NCBI GenBank assembly: GCA_030540405.1
Contig: JAUNWH010000006.1
Location: 20,065 to 84,064, forward strand
Length of the DNA: 64,000 bases
Reading direction: 5' to 3'
DNA from: Spirochaetales bacterium
GTDB taxonomy: Bacteria; Spirochaetota; Spirochaetia; Treponematales; Treponemataceae
Below, piece after piece: positions 30,307 to 64,000 of this stretch. The first letter of the stretch is position 1. Each line of letters opens with the position of its first letter. Below the pieces are notes generated by a model. It was not told the origin of the DNA. It saw nothing but the letters and a program-made list of their open reading frames with translations, and made no database searches. The position numbers and the translations under genes are program-made.

Positions 30307-30375
30307 CGATATACTTAACTTTTGTACATTCTTAACCGAGAATCGCAATGCGGAAAACATTTTTAGGGGTTGCCT

Positions 30376-31639
30376 ATGTCTCAAGAATACCTTGCATTGC
30401 AGGAACGCAAGCGGAAATGGATTCCACTTGCGTGCATCGGAAAATGCTCTATTTCACAAGCATCTAAAAGAATTGGTATTACGCCAAATTCAGTGTCTGT
30501 TTTAAAACGCCGTTACCGACTTTACGGAGATTCAATATTTGTTAATGGACACAAAGGAAAGTCTTATCAGAAAAAGAAATATAGTGACGAACTAAGGAAA
30601 AAAATTATTTGGCTTTATCTTGAATATTGGAACGATTGCAACTTTGCCACATTTAAAGACAGGTTAAAAGAATATCATAAAATCAAAATCGGGATCATTA
30701 CACTTACAAAAATTCTAAATAAAGCTGGTATAAAATCACCAAAAGCACATTCAAAAGGCAAGAAAAAGAAACATTTACCACGAAAAGAACGCCCTTGTAC
30801 TGGAGAATTACTGCAATTAGACGCTTCTGAACATGACTGGCTTATGAACGGCGAAAAAAATAACACTTCACGGGGCTGTAGATGACGCTACACATGAACC
30901 AACAGGCCTTTACTTCTGCCGGAATGAATGCAGGTTAGGTTACAGCGAAGTTTTGCGACAAACCCTTACATTACAAGGAAAACCAGAAGCTGTTTACATC
31001 GATAGACACGCGGCTTTTGTGAAAAATACACGAAAAAAAGACAAAACGCTGGAAGAGCGGCTTGAATACAGCAAGGAAGAAGAAACGCACTGGACGGAAA
31101 TATGCAATGAGCTGAACACTCAAATAATTTTAGCCCTATCCGCAGAAGCAAAAGGCAGAATTGAACGATTCTGGGAGACCTTACAAGGTCGTTTGCCGCA
31201 ATTATTCAGATTTCTAGGCATAGATACGATTGAAAAAGCAAATGAATTCATGCCGACCTACATAAAAATGTACAAAGAACGCTTTGCTGTTCCCCCACAG
31301 GATGAAAAATCACACTACAAACCCGCAAATATGACAGAAAATGAGCTTGAATATTTACTTTCCGTGAAGTTCCAGAAGAAAACACGATGGAATGGAGAGT
31401 TTATTTTTCACGGCTTTTTGTTTCACCTTGAAGCCCCTAGGGCCGCTTGCCGAGATTTTACATTATGCCTTTCTGAAAAAACAGGAATCTGGGCGTTTAT
31501 GGACGGCAGATATTACCCCGTTACCCTTGCAGAACCGCTTACAGACTGCGTTGGTGACCCGATGCCGCAGGTTGAAAAAGATTTGATTGAACGGTATTTG
31601 CTGAAATCTACACGGGTACAGCGTTACGATTTTGGGTAA
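30376..31639 (+). pseudogene. DDE transposase with a one-base frameshift at an A7 tract
   Basis: The first frame (30376-30885) holds a helix-turn-helix region (SQASKRIGITPNSVSVLKRR) and the first catalytic Asp in LLQLDASEHDW. The rest (in frame to 31639) holds the second Asp (VYIDRHAAF) and the Glu (AKGRIERFWETLQ), giving a DDE integrase core of the ISNCY/IS1202-like kind. The frames join at A7 (30854-30860): removing one A restores a single reading frame. This may be a decayed gene, a sequencing slip or a slippage site. I could not identify convincing terminal inverted repeats. The IS sits at the host-prophage border. Confidence 0.75.
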
Positions 31640-31691
31640 AGGTAATTTTTTCATCTAACGGCAACATTGCGGCGCGTAGGCTGTTGATTTT

Positions 31692-31996
31692 GGTAAAAAA
31701 ATAATTTTACCGAAAAAAGAAAATTGAAAAATCAAACTTCTCAATCTTTTTTTCATTTTTTTTACCTTCAATACTTTGCAAATAACTTTACTTTTTAAGT
31801 GTTTATAATACAACGATTTACTAATTTTTTTATGGTAAAATGGTAAAGTAATTTATATTACTTTGTAAAAGTTTTTTTAAGAATAAAAATTTTAATGAAT
31901 AAAAAATTTTATTCCAGAAAAAACTTTAGAAACTCTTGCCAAAAATCTTTTACCACTTTACCGTCAAAATATTTAATTGTTTTACCAATAGTTACC
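31692..31996. repeat. Cluster of GGTAAA/TTTACC boxes at the prophage left edge
   Basis: GGTAAA occurs at 31692, 31834 and 31842; TTTACC at 31706, 31761, 31949, 31957 and 31981; GTTACC at 31991. The doubled box GGTAAAATGGTAAA (31834-31847) is mirrored by TTTACCACTTTACC (31949-31962). The 31692/31706 pair forms a hairpin. The 529-bp stretch from 31640 to 32168 has no convincing gene. Operators, iterons or transposase-binding ends are all possible. Confidence 0.5.
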
Positions 31997-38751: not shown

Positions 38752-39420
38752 ATGGCAACGAAAATATTTTCTTCACTAAAAGAAGTTACAGAAGATGTCA
38801 ATAAAAGATTTGTCAAAGCAGGAATAAACACCGTAAACATTGTAGCAGCCACGGCACGAAATAATGCAATTCGGAATATACAAAGCAACTTTACACTGCG
38901 CAATAATTTCACTGTATCCGGCGTAAAATTCACAAAATGCGGGGCAAATGTAAAAACTTTGTCTGAAATTTCTTCGGAAACCGGCATAGATGAAAGACGC
39001 GGTTATATGGCAAGACAGGAAGAAGGGGGCGTGAGAAAAAGCTCTTCTGGGGCCAATCTTGTTATTCCGCATACAAGAGCAAGAAAAGGACAAAGCAATT
39101 CAGGGCTTATTTCTTCCCGTTACAAATACGCCACCATTAAGCAAAATTTAAAAAGACGGCAAGACGGTTCTAAAATGGCACTTGCGGTTGCAGCGTTTAA
39201 CGCTGCACAAAATAGGGGCTTTATAAGAATTGACAACACTATTTTTCAAGTTTCAAAATTTGAGCCAAAGGGTGACAATCGAATGTTTATTGCAAAACCT
39301 GTATTGAATTTAAAATTTAATTCAACTGTCACGCCTAAAAAAGAATGGCTAAGACCTGCCAGCGAAAAAGCGGCAAATCTTATGCAGAGAATCTTTAACA
39401 GTGAGATGGATAAACTTTAA
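38752..39420 (+). CDS. Phage protein bounded by duplicated cassettes (candidate moron; tail-completion-like)
   Basis: 222 aa. The pattern YMARQEEGGVRK..NLVIPHTRARKG, with basic N-terminal helices, recalls minor virion/tail-completion proteins of Mu-like phages, but I cannot name the family. A truncated paralogue is at the right end (63339-63854, minus strand). It has its own terminator-promoter cassette upstream and an identical one downstream, and no ribosome site. This layout fits an independently expressed gene inserted into the late region. Confidence 0.65.
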   Translation: MATKIFSSLKEVTEDVNKRFVKAGINTVNIVAATARNNAIRNIQSNFTLRNNFTVSGVKFTKCGANVKTLSEISSETGIDERRGYMARQEEGGVRKSSSGANLVIPHTRARKGQSNSGLISSRYKYATIKQNLKRRQDGSKMALAVAAFNAAQNRGFIRIDNTIFQVSKFEPKGDNRMFIAKPVLNLKFNSTVTPKKEWLRPASEKAANLMQRIFNSEMDKL

Positions 39421-57523: not shown

Positions 57524-58747
57524 ATGGCATACGAGAATAAAACCGTTGATTATGTTTATAACCTTATACTTACTTCCATGCAGGAAAAGTTTAACAACAG
57601 GTTGCGGCTTTTGCCGAAGGCTTTTTTAATTGTGCTTGCAAAGGTTCTGGCGGCTATTTACATCATTCCGTTCAAGCTGTGTGGCTGGTTCCTGCTCCAG
57701 ATTTTCCCGGACACGGCAAGCTATAACAAAGTGAATGTCTTAGGACATACAATCAGACCGCTTGTTAAACTTGGCGACCAGTTCGGCGTGCAAAGACCTA
57801 TGGAAGGCAAGGCATGGCAGGGAGTTATAATTGTCAGAAGGCTTGCCGAAAACAAGGTTATTGCGCTTGGTACTCAATTAAAAAGCGATATTACAGGGTT
57901 TATTTATTGCGTTTCCGAAAGCGTGGAACTTGACGAAGATGAAAAGCGTGTTGAAGTTTATTGCACTGAAAGCGGTATTGACGGAAACCTTGCGGACGGC
58001 GACATTTTAACTTTTGTAAATCCTATTGATTTTGCAGAGAAAAACGCAACAGTTGCAGAAACTACAGTAACAGGCACGTATGACGAAACGGAAGAGAGTT
58101 ACCGCCGCCGTGTTGTAAACCGTTACAGTACACAGCCGCAGGGCGGAGCTTTGGCAGATTACAGAATCTGGGCTTATGATGTGGCGGGAGTTTTACAAAC
58201 TTATCCGTACAATGACGAAAACTCACCGGGCGGCGTAATTATTTATGTTGCCGGAACTACAGATTTATACCCTACGCGCGTGCCAGATTCTGCGCTTTTA
58301 ATTGCGGTTGGCAAAGCGTGTACTTACGACCCGGACACTGGAGCTGCCAACAGAAAGCCGTTGACAGCAATTCTAGATCCGCAAGGAAACGAAACATACC
58401 CAAATGTAAGGCCTGTGCGAATTACTCGTTTCAATGTGTACATAACAGGTTTTACAGGAGCGACAAGCGAAGATTTTGGCGAATCACTGAAACCAGAACT
58501 GGAGACTTATTTCAACAACAGAGAGCCGTATATAAGAGGTTTAAGCAACGATAACAACCGCACAGATTCTATTCTGCGCAACTCTCTTATCGCAACTGCC
58601 AACAGCATTGCTTTAAGTATAAAAGCAACTTTTGACACTGTAACAATGAATACCAACGGCCCTGTAATAGCTGAATACACACTTGGAAAAGGTGAACTTG
58701 CAGCATTAGGCGACCTTTATATTAACGGGGTGATTTATGAGGGCTAG
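57524..58747 (+). CDS. Baseplate wedge protein J (Mu gp47-like)
   Basis: 407 aa. The segments RPMEGKAWQGVIIVRRLAEN, ETEESYRRRVVNRYSTQPQG and GALADYRIWAYDVAGVLQTY are the baseplate J signature. GGAG precedes the ATG. It forms the baseplate ring that triggers contraction. Overlaps the next gene by 11 bp. Confidence 0.88.
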   Translation: MAYENKTVDYVYNLILTSMQEKFNNRLRLLPKAFLIVLAKVLAAIYIIPFKLCGWFLLQIFPDTASYNKVNVLGHTIRPLVKLGDQFGVQRPMEGKAWQGVIIVRRLAENKVIALGTQLKSDITGFIYCVSESVELDEDEKRVEVYCTESGIDGNLADGDILTFVNPIDFAEKNATVAETTVTGTYDETEESYRRRVVNRYSTQPQGGALADYRIWAYDVAGVLQTYPYNDENSPGGVIIYVAGTTDLYPTRVPDSALLIAVGKACTYDPDTGAANRKPLTAILDPQGNETYPNVRPVRITRFNVYITGFTGATSEDFGESLKPELETYFNNREPYIRGLSNDNNRTDSILRNSLIATANSIALSIKATFDTVTMNTNGPVIAEYTLGKGELAALGDLYINGVIYEG

Positions 58748-59453
58748 TTTTTTAGATGCGATTAAACACCTTCTTCCTAGCGGCCCTGCATGGAACATCA
58801 CAAATAAAACCGATTTACGGCGATTGTTTGAAGCCATTGCGGTTTTGCCGGAAGAACTGCGCACAGAGATTGAAAATGTTTACATGGACTATTTTGCCGA
58901 TTCTACACGCGAACTGAAGAAATGGGAAGATGTTTTCACTGTAATTTTTACGAAAGCAGAATTAGAGCAGCGCAGGAAAGTTCTGTCTTTACTTTGGAGT
59001 ATGAACCAGGGCGGACAAAGCAAAGATTTTTTACAATCGGTTTTACAAGGAATTTTCCCGGAAATCATTGTAGAAGAAAATATCCCGTGCGCAAATCCTA
59101 GACAGGCAAACATTGCTTATTTTTGCGTTTGCGACAATTCGGTTATGGTTTGCGGAAACTCAAAAGCCTGCTGTGATTACCGCGAAGGCGATGAAACTTT
59201 TATTCCTACAATTTTGCGCAACGATACTGCAAGCCCGTATTCAATCCCGAATGACGCGGATTACTGGGCGTTCTGTTTTTATGTATGCAAAAGAGTTGTA
59301 AGAAATTCGCGCAATGAAATTCTTTATATCGAAAAGCTGCAAATTCCAATTCTTTATAAAAACTACATTGAATATCTGATTCTGCGCATTAAGCCTGTGC
59401 ATATTGTTGCGGTAATGGCCGTGGAATGGATAGAGGAGCAAAACAATGATTAA
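58737..59453 (+). CDS. Tail protein I-like (Mu gp48-like)
   Basis: 238 aa. The start FLDAIKHLLPSGPAWNITNK and EELRTEIENVYMDYFADSTR are characteristic of gp48/YmfQ-type proteins that attach fibres to the baseplate. Overlaps both neighbours. Confidence 0.82.
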   Translation: MRASFLDAIKHLLPSGPAWNITNKTDLRRLFEAIAVLPEELRTEIENVYMDYFADSTRELKKWEDVFTVIFTKAELEQRRKVLSLLWSMNQGGQSKDFLQSVLQGIFPEIIVEENIPCANPRQANIAYFCVCDNSVMVCGNSKACCDYREGDETFIPTILRNDTASPYSIPNDADYWAFCFYVCKRVVRNSRNEILYIEKLQIPILYKNYIEYLILRIKPVHIVAVMAVEWIEEQNND

Positions 59454-60027
59454 GATTGACGGCAACTACACAGACTTTAGGGATGACACCGACGAAAAAT
59501 ACCCTTATGGAAAAGCCGTTGCTGCAAGTACGCCAAACAGTACAGACGGTACACCGTGGCGCGTTATGCTGTTTAACGACTTGCACGGCGCGCGCCAGGC
59601 AATTTTTAAAAAGGCATTTGGCGGCACGGAACGCACGCCTTCCAATCAGCCGGATAATATCGAAAATTCAGACTTACTAGATGCACTTTTAAAAATCATT
59701 AGGGATGCTTTTTCTTCCAGGCTTTTTAGCGTGGAAATATCCGGCACAGATGCCGTTATTCCGTGGAACGACTTAAACATTGAATACGATGCGGGAAAAA
59801 CTTACGCCGCGATTGTTACACCAGCCGGAAACTATGAAGAGTTTTTGCCGTTTGGAACTGAATGCAAAGCAGACGGATTGCACATTTACCCCCGCCGTCT
59901 GATTAACGGAAAAGTTGTTCCTGGCACAAGACACAAAAAATGGGGAACAAGAAAGTGGGGAATCGGAAAGTGGAACGATTACGATTCAATGCGCGTAAAC
60001 TTGCAGTTTGCGGAAGTTGAATCATAA
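59446..60027 (+). CDS. Tail-fibre-region protein
   Basis: 193 aa. The N-terminus (NYTDFRDDTDEKYPYGKAVA) and the Trp/Lys-rich end (RHKKWGTRKWGIGKWNDYDS) have no motif I can name. Its place after gp48 is that of the Mu tail-fibre gene, so it may be the fibre shaft or an adaptor for the DGR target protein. Confidence 0.55.
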   Translation: MIKIDGNYTDFRDDTDEKYPYGKAVAASTPNSTDGTPWRVMLFNDLHGARQAIFKKAFGGTERTPSNQPDNIENSDLLDALLKIIRDAFSSRLFSVEISGTDAVIPWNDLNIEYDAGKTYAAIVTPAGNYEEFLPFGTECKADGLHIYPRRLINGKVVPGTRHKKWGTRKWGIGKWNDYDSMRVNLQFAEVES

Positions 60028-60067
60028 AAAAAATAAATTGCGGATTGCCGCAAAAAGGAGTTTAAGT

Positions 60068-60346
60068 ATGGTAGGAATACCGAAGTATTGCCAGACTAAA
60101 AAAGACTGGCAAAATGCTGTTGATTATGCGGTTAAGCATAATACGGGCAAAACAGAATTGTACAGTCGTTTGCAGCATTTGCGCGATGACCACTACATGA
60201 ATGTTTTGAAAGAAGAAAGCAAAGAAAAGCCTGTTGAAGAGCAGACCCCGGAAGACTACGAACCTGTAGACAATCCGGCTGCTGAAAAATACAGGATTGG
60301 AATTACAGACGAAGAAATTAAAAACATGATGGAGGCCCTTAAATGA
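60068..60346 (+). CDS. Small protein directly upstream of the DGR target
   Basis: 92 aa from the ATG at 60068 with AAAAAGGAG upstream. A basic helical half (KYCQTKKDWQNAVDYAVKHN) is followed by an acidic one. ATGA-coupled to the target gene. It could be a fibre assembly or attachment factor; nothing proves it. Confidence 0.6.
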   Translation: MVGIPKYCQTKKDWQNAVDYAVKHNTGKTELYSRLQHLRDDHYMNVLKEESKEKPVEEQTPEDYEPVDNPAAEKYRIGITDEEIKNMMEALK

Positions 60347-61542
60347 GTTTGACTTTATACAAAGACCTTGTTGACGATTGTTCAGTTGCTTGCATTCCAG
60401 AAAGCGGAAATGTTAAATCTGTAAAGGCCTCTTTTTTGGAAAAGCAGAATCCTTTTGAATACGATGCAGACATTTTGAAGTTTGCTGAAGGTGTAGGAAT
60501 TCCAATCTGGAACGGTGAAACATGGATTCAGACAATTAACCGTGAAGAATTCACTTTTGACCCTGCAAGTTTGCTTGATACAGGCAATGAGCTTGAATTT
60601 GGTGTTGATTACTGGGTTTATATCTGCATGGACGGTGGAAGCCCGGAAATTGTTGTTTCTAAAAACGAGAGCTTCCCGGATGGTTCAACAGCTGCAACTT
60701 CCCGCAAAGTCGGACATTTTTATTATGGTTCTATTCGCAAAGTTTCAAATGATGGCTTGTGGATTCCGATTGATTCAGCCGGAAATAAGTTTGGATCAAG
60801 TGGCACAAAATGGCAGGATAACGTAACAGTCGGCATTGTTCCTAATTCAATTTGGGATTTGAAGCATAAGCCTAAAATTTCACATCCTGGACTTGTCGAA
60901 GTGAACGGCATTTGGATGGGTGCATTCCAGGCAAGCGCAGAAGAAGCCTTTTCCTTTATGGGCGGCACAAACGGCTTGCACATAAAGAGCGGAAAACTTG
61001 CTACAAAATACGGTGCAATCCCTGTTACTGGAAGTGAAGGAATGAACCAGTTTACATTCAATGAAATCGCGCATAAACAGGGCTTGCGTTTGCCGCGTTA
61101 TGCAGAATGGCTTGCTGGAGCTTTTGGCAGCCCACAGGGTGAAGATGGTTCAAATAATTATGGTTGGACTAAAACAACCAATACAGGCAGAACTTATACA
61201 GGCGTAGGCATAAACACATCAACAGGTAAGCACGATACTGCAAATGGCGTTAAACCTTATGCAATAAGTGCTTACAATTTGCACGATTGCGCCGGAAATG
61301 TTGCAGAATGGACTTCTGATTATTCAATCAGACAGGATTCTACAAGCTGGAACTGGCAGAACGTTTTAGGTTCCGGCATGGGCCAGGCGTATTTGCCGTT
61401 TGCAGACGGTCTGTCTGCGCTGGTTTGCGGTAGCGACTGGTGCAACGGTGTTCACTGTGGCCCTCGCTCTGTGGACGCGCTCAACTACCCGTGGAACGTC
61501 AGCACGAGCATCGGGGCGCGGCTTGCCTGTGACGCGGCGTAG
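60343..61542 (+). CDS. DGR target (variable) protein, FGE/C-type-lectin-like tail-tip protein
   Basis: 399 aa. The N-terminal third probably attaches to the tail. From about residue 185 there is a formylglycine-generating-enzyme/C-type-lectin-like fold (GIWMGAFQAS, GLRLPRYAEWLAGAFGSP, AYNLHDCAGNVAEWTSDYS), the fold used by many DGR targets including the Treponema denticola one. The last 50 residues are the variable repeat (348-397), ending YPWNV..GARLACDAA. Variable residues are mostly Asn codons in the template. It is the last structural gene of the tail operon and presumably binds the host surface. The stop codon lies in the hairpin at 61533-61547. Confidence 0.9.
   Translation: MSLTLYKDLVDDCSVACIPESGNVKSVKASFLEKQNPFEYDADILKFAEGVGIPIWNGETWIQTINREEFTFDPASLLDTGNELEFGVDYWVYICMDGGSPEIVVSKNESFPDGSTAATSRKVGHFYYGSIRKVSNDGLWIPIDSAGNKFGSSGTKWQDNVTVGIVPNSIWDLKHKPKISHPGLVEVNGIWMGAFQASAEEAFSFMGGTNGLHIKSGKLATKYGAIPVTGSEGMNQFTFNEIAHKQGLRLPRYAEWLAGAFGSPQGEDGSNNYGWTKTTNTGRTYTGVGINTSTGKHDTANGVKPYAISAYNLHDCAGNVAEWTSDYSIRQDSTSWNWQNVLGSGMGQAYLPFADGLSALVCGSDWCNGVHCGPRSVDALNYPWNVSTSIGARLACDAA
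61386..61534 (+). repeat. DGR variable repeat (VR)
   Basis: 149 bp aligned without gaps to the TR at 62017-62165 (offset 631). There are 13 differences, all at TR adenines (nine A to G, three A to T, one A to C), and no difference at the 117 other positions. The last 26 bp (61509-61534) are identical and GC-rich, the expected initiation-of-homology region. Confidence 0.95.
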
Positions 61543-61547
61543 CCGCG
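61533..61547 (+). other. Hairpin/cruciform at the end of VR
   Basis: CGCGGC-GTA-GCCGCG is a perfect 6-bp stem with a 3-base loop, directly after the identical part of VR and containing the stop codon. DGR targets usually need such a stem next to VR for recognition. TR has no such stem. Confidence 0.8.
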
Positions 61548-61597
61548 TTTCTGTTTTCTGCTTATCTGAATATCTGGTTTTCTTTGTGAGGTAACAA

Positions 61598-61984
61598 ATG
61601 GATTTTTTGCAAGAGAAACACCCTGCCGGAAGTGTGTGGAATCTGTTGCTTTTTCAGAAATTCTACGATTTTGATGTGTACTTTGAGCCGATTATAGAAC
61701 GCTTTCCAGCGTTTGAAAAATCGGCTTGGTGCGCACAAATTAAAAACACTTTGATAGACACGATAAAGCTGATCTTGATAACAAACAAAGCCCGTGACAA
61801 AATGCCGGGTTGGTATAAAGTAGACACCAATTTGGAGCTGCTTAAAATCTATATCCGGCGTATGCGTCAAAAGAAATATCTCTCAACCCGAACTTATGAA
61901 ACGGCAGTAAAGCGTCTTGCAGAGATAGGTAAGATTCTAAGCGGTCTTATCAAGGGCATTGGCAACAATGCCTGTAAAAACTAA
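61598..61984 (+). CDS. avd: Accessory variability determinant (Avd)
   Basis: 128 aa, all helical and basic at the C-terminus (KIYIRRMRQKKYLSTRTYET, KRLAEIGKILSGLIKGIG). Length, charge and place between VR and TR match Avd, a pentameric four-helix-bundle protein that binds the DGR reverse transcriptase and template RNA. GTGAGG precedes the ATG. Confidence 0.85.
   Translation: MDFLQEKHPAGSVWNLLLFQKFYDFDVYFEPIIERFPAFEKSAWCAQIKNTLIDTIKLILITNKARDKMPGWYKVDTNLELLKIYIRRMRQKKYLSTRTYETAVKRLAEIGKILSGLIKGIGNNACKN
61955..61972 (+). other. GNRA-type hairpin at the end of avd
   Basis: GGCATTG-GCAA-CAATGCC is a 7-bp perfect stem with a GCAA tetraloop, 45 bp before TR. It may be part of the folded template RNA. 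Confidence 0.5.
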
Positions 61985-62016
61985 CATTTTTACGAAAAGG
62001 CAGCTGAAACAAAATT

Positions 62017-62165
62017 GGCATATTTGCCGTTTGCAAACGGTCTGTCTGCGCTGATTTGCGGTAACAACTGGAACAACGGTGTTCACTGTGGCCCTCGCAC
62101 TGTGAACGCGAACAACTACCCGTGGAACGTCAACACGAACATCGGGGCGCGGCTTGCCTGTGACG
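62017..62165 (+). ncRNA. DGR template repeat (TR) within its template RNA
   Basis: 149 bp matching VR except at adenines. In the VR frame it contains eleven AAC (Asn) codons, the typical design that gives wide amino-acid choice on A mutagenesis. The frame here is only copied, not translated. It lies between avd and the RT gene as in the Bordetella phage DGR. Confidence 0.93.
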
Positions 62166-62283
62166 AATGTAAATTGTTAAGAAAAAGGCATACGCTGTTA
62201 ATCACGGTTACGGCGTAGTGACGATTTATTTTTAACGTCAGTTCGGCTGCCTTTGCATGACATTTGTTGTGCTAAAGTCTTAG

Positions 62284-62318
62284 ACCAGAAAGGCTACGCG
62301 CTTTTCTGGTTATTTTTT
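62284..62318 (+). terminator. Strong hairpin with T run between TR and the RT gene
   Basis: ACCAGAAAGGC pairs with GCTTTTCTGGT (11 bp, one G-U) around TACGC and is followed by TATTTTTT. It may end the template RNA and limit read-through into the RT gene. Confidence 0.75.
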
Positions 62319-62327
62319 AAGTGAATA

Positions 62328-63335
62328 ATGATGGATAAACCTATATTTAGTGAAGTTTACGATTTTGAGAATTTGTATTGTGCAGCTTATGAAACTATAC
62401 AGGATAAAAAGTTTTATCCCGATGAATTAAGGTTTACAAGCAAACTTGAAGAAAATCTGATTGAATTACAGAATCAACTTATCTGGCACACATACAAGCC
62501 GGGCAGTTATTACAAATTTTGGGTTTATGATCCGAAGAAGCGATTGATTTGCGCTCCAGAACTAAAAGACAGGGTTATTCACACGGCTGTTTGCAGGGTT
62601 GTCGAAAAATACATCGACCCGCGCCTAGATTACGATTCTTACGCTTGCAGAAAAGGCAAGGGAACGCTTGATGCTGCAAACAGAGCGGCTTTTTATGCAA
62701 ACAAATATTCTCATTTTGTATATTTTGACATTAAGGGCTTCTTTGACAGCATTCCAATTTTACAGCTTGAAGAAGTTTATCTAAAACGTTTTATAGATGA
62801 TTCTGAAATTATATGGCTGTTGCATACAATTTTTATGAAAGATTGCAACGGCGTAGGCATAAAGAAAGGATGCAGAACAAGCCAGCTTTCAGCAAATGTT
62901 TATTTAAATGAATTAGACCATTTTATCCGGCATACACTTAAAGTAAAGGCGTTTGTCAGATATATGGATGATTTTATTATATTCAGCAATGACGCGGAAT
63001 ATTTGAAATATTGCTGGATTGAAATAGCAAGATTTCTGGAAGAAAAACTTTTCTTGAAACTTAACGACAAAACTTTTATAGGCTTAACTTCACAAGGATT
63101 TGAGTTTGTAGGTTACAGGATTTTTAAGGATTATAAAATTGTGAGAAAAACCGCTTTGGACAGAAGCGCAAAAACCTTAAAATCATGGAAGAATGGCAAA
63201 GTTGACGATTTATCCTTCTATCGGAGTACGGCAAGCCGTGTAGGACATTGCCAGGGTACGGCCGGTTACAAATGGTACTGCGAATATTTATTGAAAGCGT
63301 TGAAAATTGCGTTAATAGACAGAAAAGAAGAATAA
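62328..63335 (+). CDS. DGR-type reverse transcriptase
   Basis: 335 aa. RT blocks: RLICAPELKDRVIHTAVCRV (RT1), FVYFDIKGFFDSI with Asp134 (RT3), GIKKGCRTSQLSANVYL (RT4), YMDD at 212-215 in FVRYMDDFIIFS (RT5) and GFEFVGYRI (RT7). The SQ in RT4 is the mark of DGR enzymes, where group II intron and retron enzymes usually have SP. There is no maturase, RNase H or endonuclease domain. With Avd it copies TR RNA into cDNA while misreading adenines. Starts at either of two ATGs (62328, 62331). Confidence 0.95.
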   Translation: MMDKPIFSEVYDFENLYCAAYETIQDKKFYPDELRFTSKLEENLIELQNQLIWHTYKPGSYYKFWVYDPKKRLICAPELKDRVIHTAVCRVVEKYIDPRLDYDSYACRKGKGTLDAANRAAFYANKYSHFVYFDIKGFFDSIPILQLEEVYLKRFIDDSEIIWLLHTIFMKDCNGVGIKKGCRTSQLSANVYLNELDHFIRHTLKVKAFVRYMDDFIIFSNDAEYLKYCWIEIARFLEEKLFLKLNDKTFIGLTSQGFEFVGYRIFKDYKIVRKTALDRSAKTLKSWKNGKVDDLSFYRSTASRVGHCQGTAGYKWYCEYLLKALKIALIDRKEE

Positions 63336-63338
63336 GTT

Positions 63339-63854
63339 TTAGCTTAGCTTATCCATTTCTTTGTTGAAAATATCCTGCATCATTTGCGCCGCATAATCAG
63401 AAGCAGGTTCAAGCCATGCTTTTTTAGGGGTGTGTGTACCTGGATATTTTAAGTTCAAAATGTGGGTAGACTTAAAAGAAACGTTATCACCGCTTTTTCT
63501 AAAAGATGTAACCTTAAAAATAGAATTGTTCATGCGAATAAAGCCGTGTGTTTTGGCAGCAACAAAAGCACGGGCAACATGAGCAGCTTTCTTGCTTTTA
63601 AAGTTTGTCGAACCATGAACTACAAGCGGCTTTATGGCACTGTAATAATATGAACGGCGGACGGTTTTTAAATTTGAACCACCACGGGCTTTTGTGGTTG
63701 GTATAACCAAATTTCCGTTTGTTCCTCTGTGCGTTCCGCCTTTTTCCTGGCGTTCCATGTATGAGATTCGGTTTGTCGCGCCAGTTTCGCTTTTAATCTG
63801 ATTAAGCGTTTTTACATTTGAAGCGTCCATGTGTCGCCTGTTCGGATGCAACAT
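63339..63854 (-). pseudogene. N-terminally truncated paralogue of the 38752 gene
   Basis: From a possible ATG at 63830 it aligns with the 222-aa protein at 38752 from its residue about 63 to the end (SNVKTLNQIKSETGATNRIS with ANVKTLSEISSETGIDERRG; NLVIPTTKARGG with NLVIPHTRARKG; shared C-terminus ..MDKL). The first 60 residues are absent and replaced by unrelated ParB-like sequence. It converges on the RT gene, 3 bp apart. Probably non-functional. Confidence 0.7.
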
Positions 63855-63982
63855 TCCACAAGGCCAACATCAACGCCCTGTTTTTGCAAAAGTGCAAGCG
63901 CACGCAAACGGCGATGACCGCAAATCAATTCATAAACATTCTTACCCAGGGCAAACGCATGTAAAAACTCTTTCTGATAAAA
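63812..63982 (-). pseudogene. ParB-like nuclease fragment at the right edge
   Basis: An open frame bounded by stops encodes GKNVYELICGHRRLRALALL, a clear match to the ParB/Spo0J signature (YELIAGHRRLRAA). It lacks a start and breaks off where the paralogue begins near 63835. ParB-like proteins occur in the early region of Mu-like phages, so the rest may lie beyond the window. Confidence 0.5.
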
Positions 63983-64000
63983 TTACAGAAAGTGTGAAAT

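What the first reader, a model, noticed from the sequence alone, without database searches (positions are those of the whole stretch)
60343..63335. Complete diversity-generating retroelement at the end of a prophage tail operon
Target gene with VR, avd, TR and RT lie in the order known from Bordetella phage BPP-1. By direct alignment, TR (62017-62165) and VR (61386-61534) differ at 13 of 32 TR adenines and at none of 117 other bases. The RT has YMDD and the DGR-type SQ in motif 4. The system should rewrite the tip of the phage tail and so its host range.
Basis: partly seen in the sequence, partly recalled or inferred. Interest (0 to 1): 0.95.

Follow-up and report, generated by a model that had tools for sequence, protein, structure and literature searches.

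The report
Phage tail-tip mutator in Treponema
A prophage in a probably Treponema-type bacterium carries a complete diversity-generating retroelement whose target gene differs from its template copy at adenines only; the element would likely let the phage keep changing the protein with which it is predicted to grip its host, and two related phage contigs that match base for base over about 15 kb differ in that one stretch alone.

Summary

Relatives add what one genome cannot show. In 26 TR/VR pairs, 353 of 775 template adenines changed but only 16 of 2813 other bases. Two IMG/VR contigs align over 15,556 bp; all 22 mismatches and one 3-nt gap lie in the VR.

One feature departs from the textbook. 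At the residue matching bRT Ile181 (recalled as a promoter of adenine mutagenesis), this RT clade has lysine; the 64 non-Lys loci compared have I, L, V or P. Adenine targeting persists, but A-to-C changes are rarer (18 of 214 versus 182 of 765). Cause is unproven: essentially one clade, and some Ile loci are also low.

This copy lies at a contig end, and about 6.3 kb of neighbouring phage genes are absent relative to its relatives.

The parts
60343..61542 (+). target gene, 399 aa, Mtd homologue (Mtd second domain at residues 76-138, C-type-lectin/FGE fold at 240-395)
61386..61534 (+). variable repeat (VR); 19 codons carry template adenines at non-silent positions
   Evidence: the script's 20th row, codon 398, lies partly outside the repeat and is left out
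61509..61534 (+). 3' end of VR, 26 bases, G+C-rich and identical to the TR end: IMH-like
   Evidence: alignment; IMH role from PMC3240598 passages
61532..61548 (+). perfect 7-bp inverted repeat with a 3-nt loop around the stop codon, like the hairpin/cruciform that BPP-1 uses next to its VR
   Evidence: searches (DNA fold z -4.0; perfect stem of 6 or more in 18 of 26 loci, 1.3% in shuffles; BPP-1 has one too), PMC3240598 passages
61598..61984 (+). avd, 128 aa accessory variability determinant
   Evidence: PF22296 E 4.3e-20, PHROG 3206 E 8.8e-20, NF033474 78.1 bits, cut-off 80
62017..62165 (+). template repeat (TR), intergenic, 32 adenines, 11 AAC codons in the frame of the VR
62166..62320 (+). 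structured spacer RNA between TR and RT: four main covarying helices
   Evidence: fold of 62166-62327 z -3.3; 99.8% of cells paired and 17 of 37 pairs with double changes in 12 sequences; 31 of 37 in 19 sequences
62240..62240 (+). adenine of a conserved TCAG in the spacer, proposed cDNA-priming base (inference)
   Evidence: TCAG in 19 of 19 sequences of A5 but TCGG in L072 and L073; BPP-1 has GTCAG with A at spacer position 56
62283..62311 (+). last spacer hairpin followed by a T run: terminator-like
   Evidence: covarying helix 5
62328..63335 (+). DGR reverse transcriptase, 335 aa, YMDD, motif 4 GIKKGCRTSQ
   Evidence: PF00078 E 9.8e-22, PHROG 1423 E 6.8e-91, tree
62865..62867 (+). codon of Lys180, the position of BPP-1 bRT Ile181
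   Evidence: alignment with NC_005357 brt; numbering, letters
57524..60346 (+). upstream baseplate/tail genes: baseplate J-like (57524-58747), Mu gp48-like (58737-59453, Pfam under its cut-off), a gene with a weak tail-fibre match (59446-60027, E 0.015), and a 92-aa gene without clear match (60068-60346)

Best explanation
This is a complete BPP-1-type diversity-generating retroelement in a contractile-tailed prophage: its reverse transcriptase with Avd is predicted to copy the TR RNA with errors at adenines and to write the copy into the 3' end of an Mtd-like gene, likely changing the phage's receptor-binding tail tip. Shown by sequence: all parts in BPP-1 order, the adenine-only difference, an Mtd homologue as target, and VR-only divergence between otherwise identical relatives. 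Inferred: the structured spacer RNA downstream of TR recruits RT-Avd and supplies the priming adenine; the hairpin at the VR end marks the target; the protein sits at the tail tip and sets host choice. The RT belongs to a Treponema-phage clade with Lys where bRT has Ile181, and that clade still targets adenine.
For: 13 of 32 adenines and 0 of 117 other bases changed. Pooled 26 pairs: 353 of 775 versus 16 of 2813. L029 versus L030: 15,556 bp aligned, 22 mismatches and one gap; the 22 mismatches and a 3-nt insertion are all found in the VR, 20 of the 22 at TR adenines; upstream genes, target 5' part, avd, TR, spacer and RT are 100% identical. L077/L080: 13 differences in the VR window, 3 in the other 3965 columns. 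Mtd by profile and fold; Avd; RT grouped with phage DGR RTs, support 97. Spacer RNA with covariation, refound by model in 8 diverged loci not used to build it and in two more. VR-end hairpin in 18 of 26 loci.
Against: No expression, cDNA or phage particle was seen. This prophage copy may not be viable: relative to L034, 6.3 kb with a primase and part of parB are missing at 63815, about 186 bp before the contig ends; an assembly error is possible. L032, L061, L062, L065 and L081 each have 2-4 non-adenine VR changes, L067 and L068 one each, and L065 (= L030) also a 3-nt insertion. The TCAG is not invariant (L072, L073). The spacer models do not find BPP-1.
Confidence: 0.94

Rival explanations
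1. The element was active but is now stuck in a decaying prophage of this strain: the VR is a fossil of past rounds of writing.
For: About 6.3 kb of replication and partition genes are missing from the contig, joined at an 11-bp near-repeat; the minor-tail ORF 63339-63854 runs on into a parB piece.
Against: The join lies about 186 bp from a contig end and the last 52 bases do not continue the match to L034, so it may be an assembly fault. All DGR genes are open, and close relatives vary in the VR.
Confidence: 0.15
2. The TR/VR difference is ordinary divergence after a duplication, or sequencing error.
For: Two similar copies in one locus.
Against: Adenine restriction, p 2e-10 in the window and 5e-243 pooled (related pairs are not independent); relatives identical elsewhere differ in the VR only.
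Confidence: 0.01
3. The RT is a group II intron or retron enzyme lying next to an unrelated repeat.
For: NCBIfam's best hit is a group II RT model (113 bits, cut-off 300); the RT scores 53 bits with the St85 retron model (cut-off 235).
Against: Far below those cut-offs; no DGR RT model was among the NCBIfam hits; the tree groups it with phage DGR RTs including BPP-1 (a quick tree with a long retron branch); Avd and TR are alongside.
Confidence: 0.01
4. The shortage of A-to-C changes in the Lys clade comes from selection on amino acids, host dNTP pools or shared ancestry, not from the RT residue.
For: Lys is essentially one clade (3 changes on a 122-RT tree). Several Ile loci also have few A-to-C changes (1 of 19 in L260 and in L269; 1 of 17 in L116, 0 of 9 in L123). 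VRs are selected sequences.
Against: The difference stays within AAC codons (16 of 172 changed sites versus 14 of 53, p 0.003) and for adenines before C (2 of 94 versus 36 of 242, p 4e-4 by site, 0.014 by locus).
Confidence: 0.65

Closest known systems
Bordetella phage BPP-1 DGR (NC_005357)
   Same: Order mtd-avd-TR-brt, Mtd fold, Avd, adenine-biased TR/VR pair, hairpin beside the VR, TCAG in the spacer
   Different: RT only 33.5% identical; Lys for Ile181; spacer RNA not matched by the covariance models; other host
Treponema denticola chromosomal DGR (TvpA; PMC4891356 passages)
   Same: Same kind of element in a spirochaete, C-type-lectin-fold targets
   Different: Cellular, predicted lipoprotein targets instead of Mtd; the own genome holds a separate locus of that sort on C42
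Metagenomic phage DGRs surveyed by Roux et al. 2021 (PMC8144416 passages)
   Same: Phage-borne, targets seemingly attachment proteins, active in nature, mostly at least 75% of mismatches at adenines
   Different: Whether this Treponema-phage group was in that survey was not tested; 'Spirochaet' occurs 0 times in its main text
DGR-bearing Vibrio phages ZX4290 and VP58.5
   Same: Top-listed named phage RTs (42% and 38%), A-restricted pairs in both, Avd annotated in ZX4290
   Different: Ile or Leu at position 181, other spacer sequences

Membership tests
Diversity-generating retroelement | TR/VR pair with differences confined to template adenines | tested here: met
   13 of 32 versus 0 of 117; 26 pairs pooled
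Diversity-generating retroelement | RT of the DGR group, SQ instead of SP in motif 4 | tested here: met
   Support 97 for a group of 23 rows (5 phage DGR RTs, the window, 17 unlabelled relatives) without 3 group II and 1 retron RT; GIKKGCRTSQ. The usual I/L/V before the Gly is Lys here
Diversity-generating retroelement | Accessory protein Avd beside the TR | tested here: met
   NCBIfam 78.1 bits, cut-off 80
Diversity-generating retroelement | IMH at the VR 3' end followed by a hairpin/cruciform | tested here: met
   G+C-rich end; hairpin in window and 18 of 26 loci. Need for it taken from PMC3240598 passages
Diversity-generating retroelement | IMH and IMH* nearly but not fully identical (PMC12875486 passages) | tested here: inconclusive
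   Here the last 26 bases are identical and the copies part at once after them
Diversity-generating retroelement | Adenine-mutagenised cDNA and retrohoming | not testable with these tools
   Needs cDNA or amplicon sequencing; VR-only divergence of L029/L030 is indirect support
Mtd family of receptor-binding proteins | Mtd second domain plus C-type-lectin fold with the VR at its C-terminus | tested here: met
Mtd family of receptor-binding proteins | Trimer at the tail-fibre tip that binds the host receptor | not testable with these tools
   Only gene neighbourhood (baseplate genes upstream) speaks for it; the trimer is recalled

The most novel reading that the evidence does not exclude
This phage clade runs a DGR with a re-tuned mutator: its RT has lysine in place of the bRT Ile181 that is recalled to contact the incoming nucleotide, keeps adenine targeting at the same rate as other DGRs, but has largely given up dG misincorporation, so its VRs explore fewer A-to-C changes. 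Together with its covarying spacer RNA, this would make the clade a natural experiment on what sets the DGR mutation spectrum.
Probability: 0.25. Interest if true: 0.7.

Novelty: new member of a known kind. Interest (0 to 1): 0.5.

Why it matters
It places a BPP-1-like tail-tip diversifier in phages of Treponema relatives, with near-perfect natural evidence of activity: two contigs identical over about 15 kb except in the VR. It also offers a natural test of an open question, what in the reverse transcriptase and its RNA makes adenine the mutated base and sets which bases replace it, because a whole clade carries lysine at a residue recalled from work on BPP-1 as a promoter of adenine mutagenesis.

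Tried and rejected
Rfam scan of 61300-63400: no match at E up to 1. Covariance model R1 over 22 sources: no hit in BPP-1, four other phages, C42, L039-L041, L072 or L073, and one stray hit at window 31575-31755 with E 0.14. Model R2 gained L072/L073 but none of the other 16 of 18 sources at a useful E-value. So the spacer RNA is shown for these spirochaete-phage loci only, and the BPP-1 likeness (ACGG in a hairpin, then the A of TCAG 36-37 nt on) is a lead.

First structure model (34 rows) was poor in the VR part (mean pLDDT 73); the 116-row model replaced it.

More distant Lys RTs (P0154, P0149) were sought in viral contigs to replicate the spectrum result: none found; P0176, the likeliest separate origin, was not sought. 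More loci from genomes weakened it: 11 of 30 loci gave a pair; eight further Ile loci (L254, L260, L264, L268, L269, L271, L004, L018) have 24 A-to-C of 153 changes, and one further Lys locus, L252, 2 of 15. L249 and L250 of that call repeat L034 and L035 and are not counted again.

Rows dropped before counts; of 32 loci given, 3 were too short (L069, L084, L085) and 3 only matched themselves (L063, L066, L077), leaving 26; 85 of 102 loci gave a pair; one search dropped 6 identical rows. One search kept only pairs with at least 75% of mismatches at A, so it is not used for adenine specificity. In one search, 5 of the 25 pairs had no RT motif in reach (L062, L068, L080, L083, L086) and are outside its Lys/Ile tables; and one search had sorted them by kinship to the two groups. 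In one search three columns outside the VR for L064/L065 are, I infer, an overhang left by trimming past the 3-nt gap, since searches place all 22 mismatches in the VR.

Papers not held: Handa 2018, Naorem 2017, Handa 2021, Handa 2025. What is said of bRT R74/I181 and of A56 is recalled. Searches with these terms listed no DGR paper holding 'A56' or 'I181'. That Lys at this place is unreported I cannot claim beyond those searches.

Full report
CHECK. The copies stop matching outside these limits. The own genome holds no third copy at E up to 0.001.

HOST. G154, of the same genus, has its RT at C12:163408-164409 with 89% identity, the place and identity of L035, a record titled Treponema sp.. 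Treponema is inferred from that.

RELATIVES. RTs 87-89% identical occur in 7 IMG/VR contigs and in 4 genome contigs of Treponema or Spirochaetales MAGs, and one at 71%. In 390 genomes of the order (own genome included, E up to 1e-40), 5 others carry close relatives: three full-length at 89%, one at 75%, and an 85-residue piece at 94%; three of these look like the records. They lie in three genera of one family, so the phage group is patchy and mobile.

ADENINE TEST. With no adenine filter, 26 of 32 loci gave a pair: 353 of 775 template adenines differ (45.5%) and 16 of 2813 other bases (0.6%). Exceptions: L032 has four non-adenine changes within 13 bases, and L065 (the same contig as L030) a 3-nt insertion and two changes.

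ACTIVITY. L029 and L030 (IMG/VR 3300022661_000159 and 3300018430_000992) align over 15,556 bp with 22 mismatches and one gap; all 22 and a 3-nt insertion lie inside the VR, 20 of the 22 facing TR adenines. Upstream genes, target 5' part, avd, TR, spacer and RT are 100% identical. Not every pair of samples differs: L063 has the same VR as L064 (the L029 contig) over its whole 7294 bp. L067/L068 differ at 19 VR positions and at 23 of 4614 other columns.

RNA. The 162-nt spacer after the TR folds better than shuffles (z -3.3). Over 12 relatives, 99.8% of pair cells hold, 17 of 37 pairs show changes on both sides (shuffles 4.5), and slid controls fall to 36-44% paired. With 19 sequences, 31 of 37 pairs show double changes, but that alignment is fitted to the model. 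A second model then finds L072/L073, not used in building, at 3e-15. TCAG sits in this RNA in 19 of 19 aligned loci but is TCGG in L072/L073. PMC12875486 (passages) states that in BPP-1 the spacer folds, recruits bRT-Avd, and that an internal adenine primes cDNA synthesis; that this is A56 is recalled, and position 56 is the A of a GTCAG in the BPP-1 record. The priming site here is therefore inference.

TARGET MARK. A perfect inverted repeat with a 3-nt loop around the stop codon follows the VR. It differs in sequence between relatives while staying paired (for example ACGCGGC/GCCGCGT, ACGCAGC/GCTGCGT, GCAAACGC/GCGTTTGC). 18 of 26 loci have a perfect stem of 6 or more in the stretch scanned (1.3% in shuffles); misses are L072, L073, L075, L078, L080, L081, L083, L087. 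In L080 and L083 the local alignment had cut the VR short. BPP-1 uses such a hairpin (PMC3240598 passages).

LYS180. Aligned without gaps to bRT, motif 4 reads GIKKGCRTSQ against GIPIGSLTSQ, so Ile181 is Lys. Among the window RT and the 120 best of 2323 hits, 35 have Lys, 84 Ile, 1 Leu, 1 Val, and all 121 keep Arg74. Of 79 loci with a TR/VR pair, 15 have Lys and 64 have Ile, Leu, Val or Pro. The rate at adenines is the same (0.45 in both). A-to-C makes 18 of 214 changes in Lys loci and 182 of 765 in others (per-locus p 4e-5). Within AAC codons it is 16 of 172 against 14 of 53 in the sister Ile group, both groups including loci whose RT was not in reach. For adenines before C it is 2 of 94 versus 36 of 242. 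Against: Lys is almost one clade, some Ile loci are as low, and VRs are selected. PMC12875486 (section 7 read whole) shows that bRT's error profile depends on the next base, with elevated dG before C, which makes the near absence of A-to-C there in this clade worth testing.

STATE OF THIS COPY. The contig ends at 64000. In the relative L034 the cassette is followed on the minus strand by a minor tail gene, a primase, and ParB/ParA-like genes; in the window the minor tail ORF joins a parB piece at 63815, 6.3 kb being absent. Deletion or assembly fault cannot be told apart.

VERDICT. An ordinary, complete and well-evidenced Mtd-type DGR, new as a member, with one real oddity in its RT.

Noticed in passing
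G000 contig C42, locus L097 (TR at C42:11112-11259, RT frame about C42:11286-12392): A second, cellular-type DGR in the same genome: one TR and four VR candidates, on C42 (8543-8688, 10652-10799), C35 (37979-38125, minus) and C77 (1057-1174). Of base mismatches, 23 of 34, 21 of 24, 18 of 22 and 15 of 25 face TR adenines in that order; the two C42 targets are FGE-sulfatase proteins.
   Followed up: partly
window 63815-64000: A minor-tail ORF runs into a parB piece at an 11-bp near-repeat; 6.3 kb missing relative to L034, and the last 52 bases do not continue the match to L034.
   Followed up: partly
L070 and L071 (RT; L071:7989-8990): These two Lys-clade RTs lack YxDD (L071 reads NMDD), yet 14 and 15 of 32 template adenines differ in their VRs.
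   Followed up: no
L034:15129-16803: ParB- and ParA-like genes near a primase, as in phage-plasmids, although the window's copy lies on a contig with chromosomal genes such as uvrB.
   Followed up: no
window 38752-39420 (+) and 63339-63854 (-): Two related 'minor tail protein' genes (PHROG 4688) on opposite strands of the same prophage.
   Followed up: no
window 30370-31639: A transposase-like gene split into two ORFs between chromosomal genes and the phage terminase genes.
   Followed up: no
L030:5625-5776: A VR with an in-frame 3-nt insertion and two non-adenine changes, against an otherwise identical relative: possible slippage during cDNA synthesis.
   Followed up: partly
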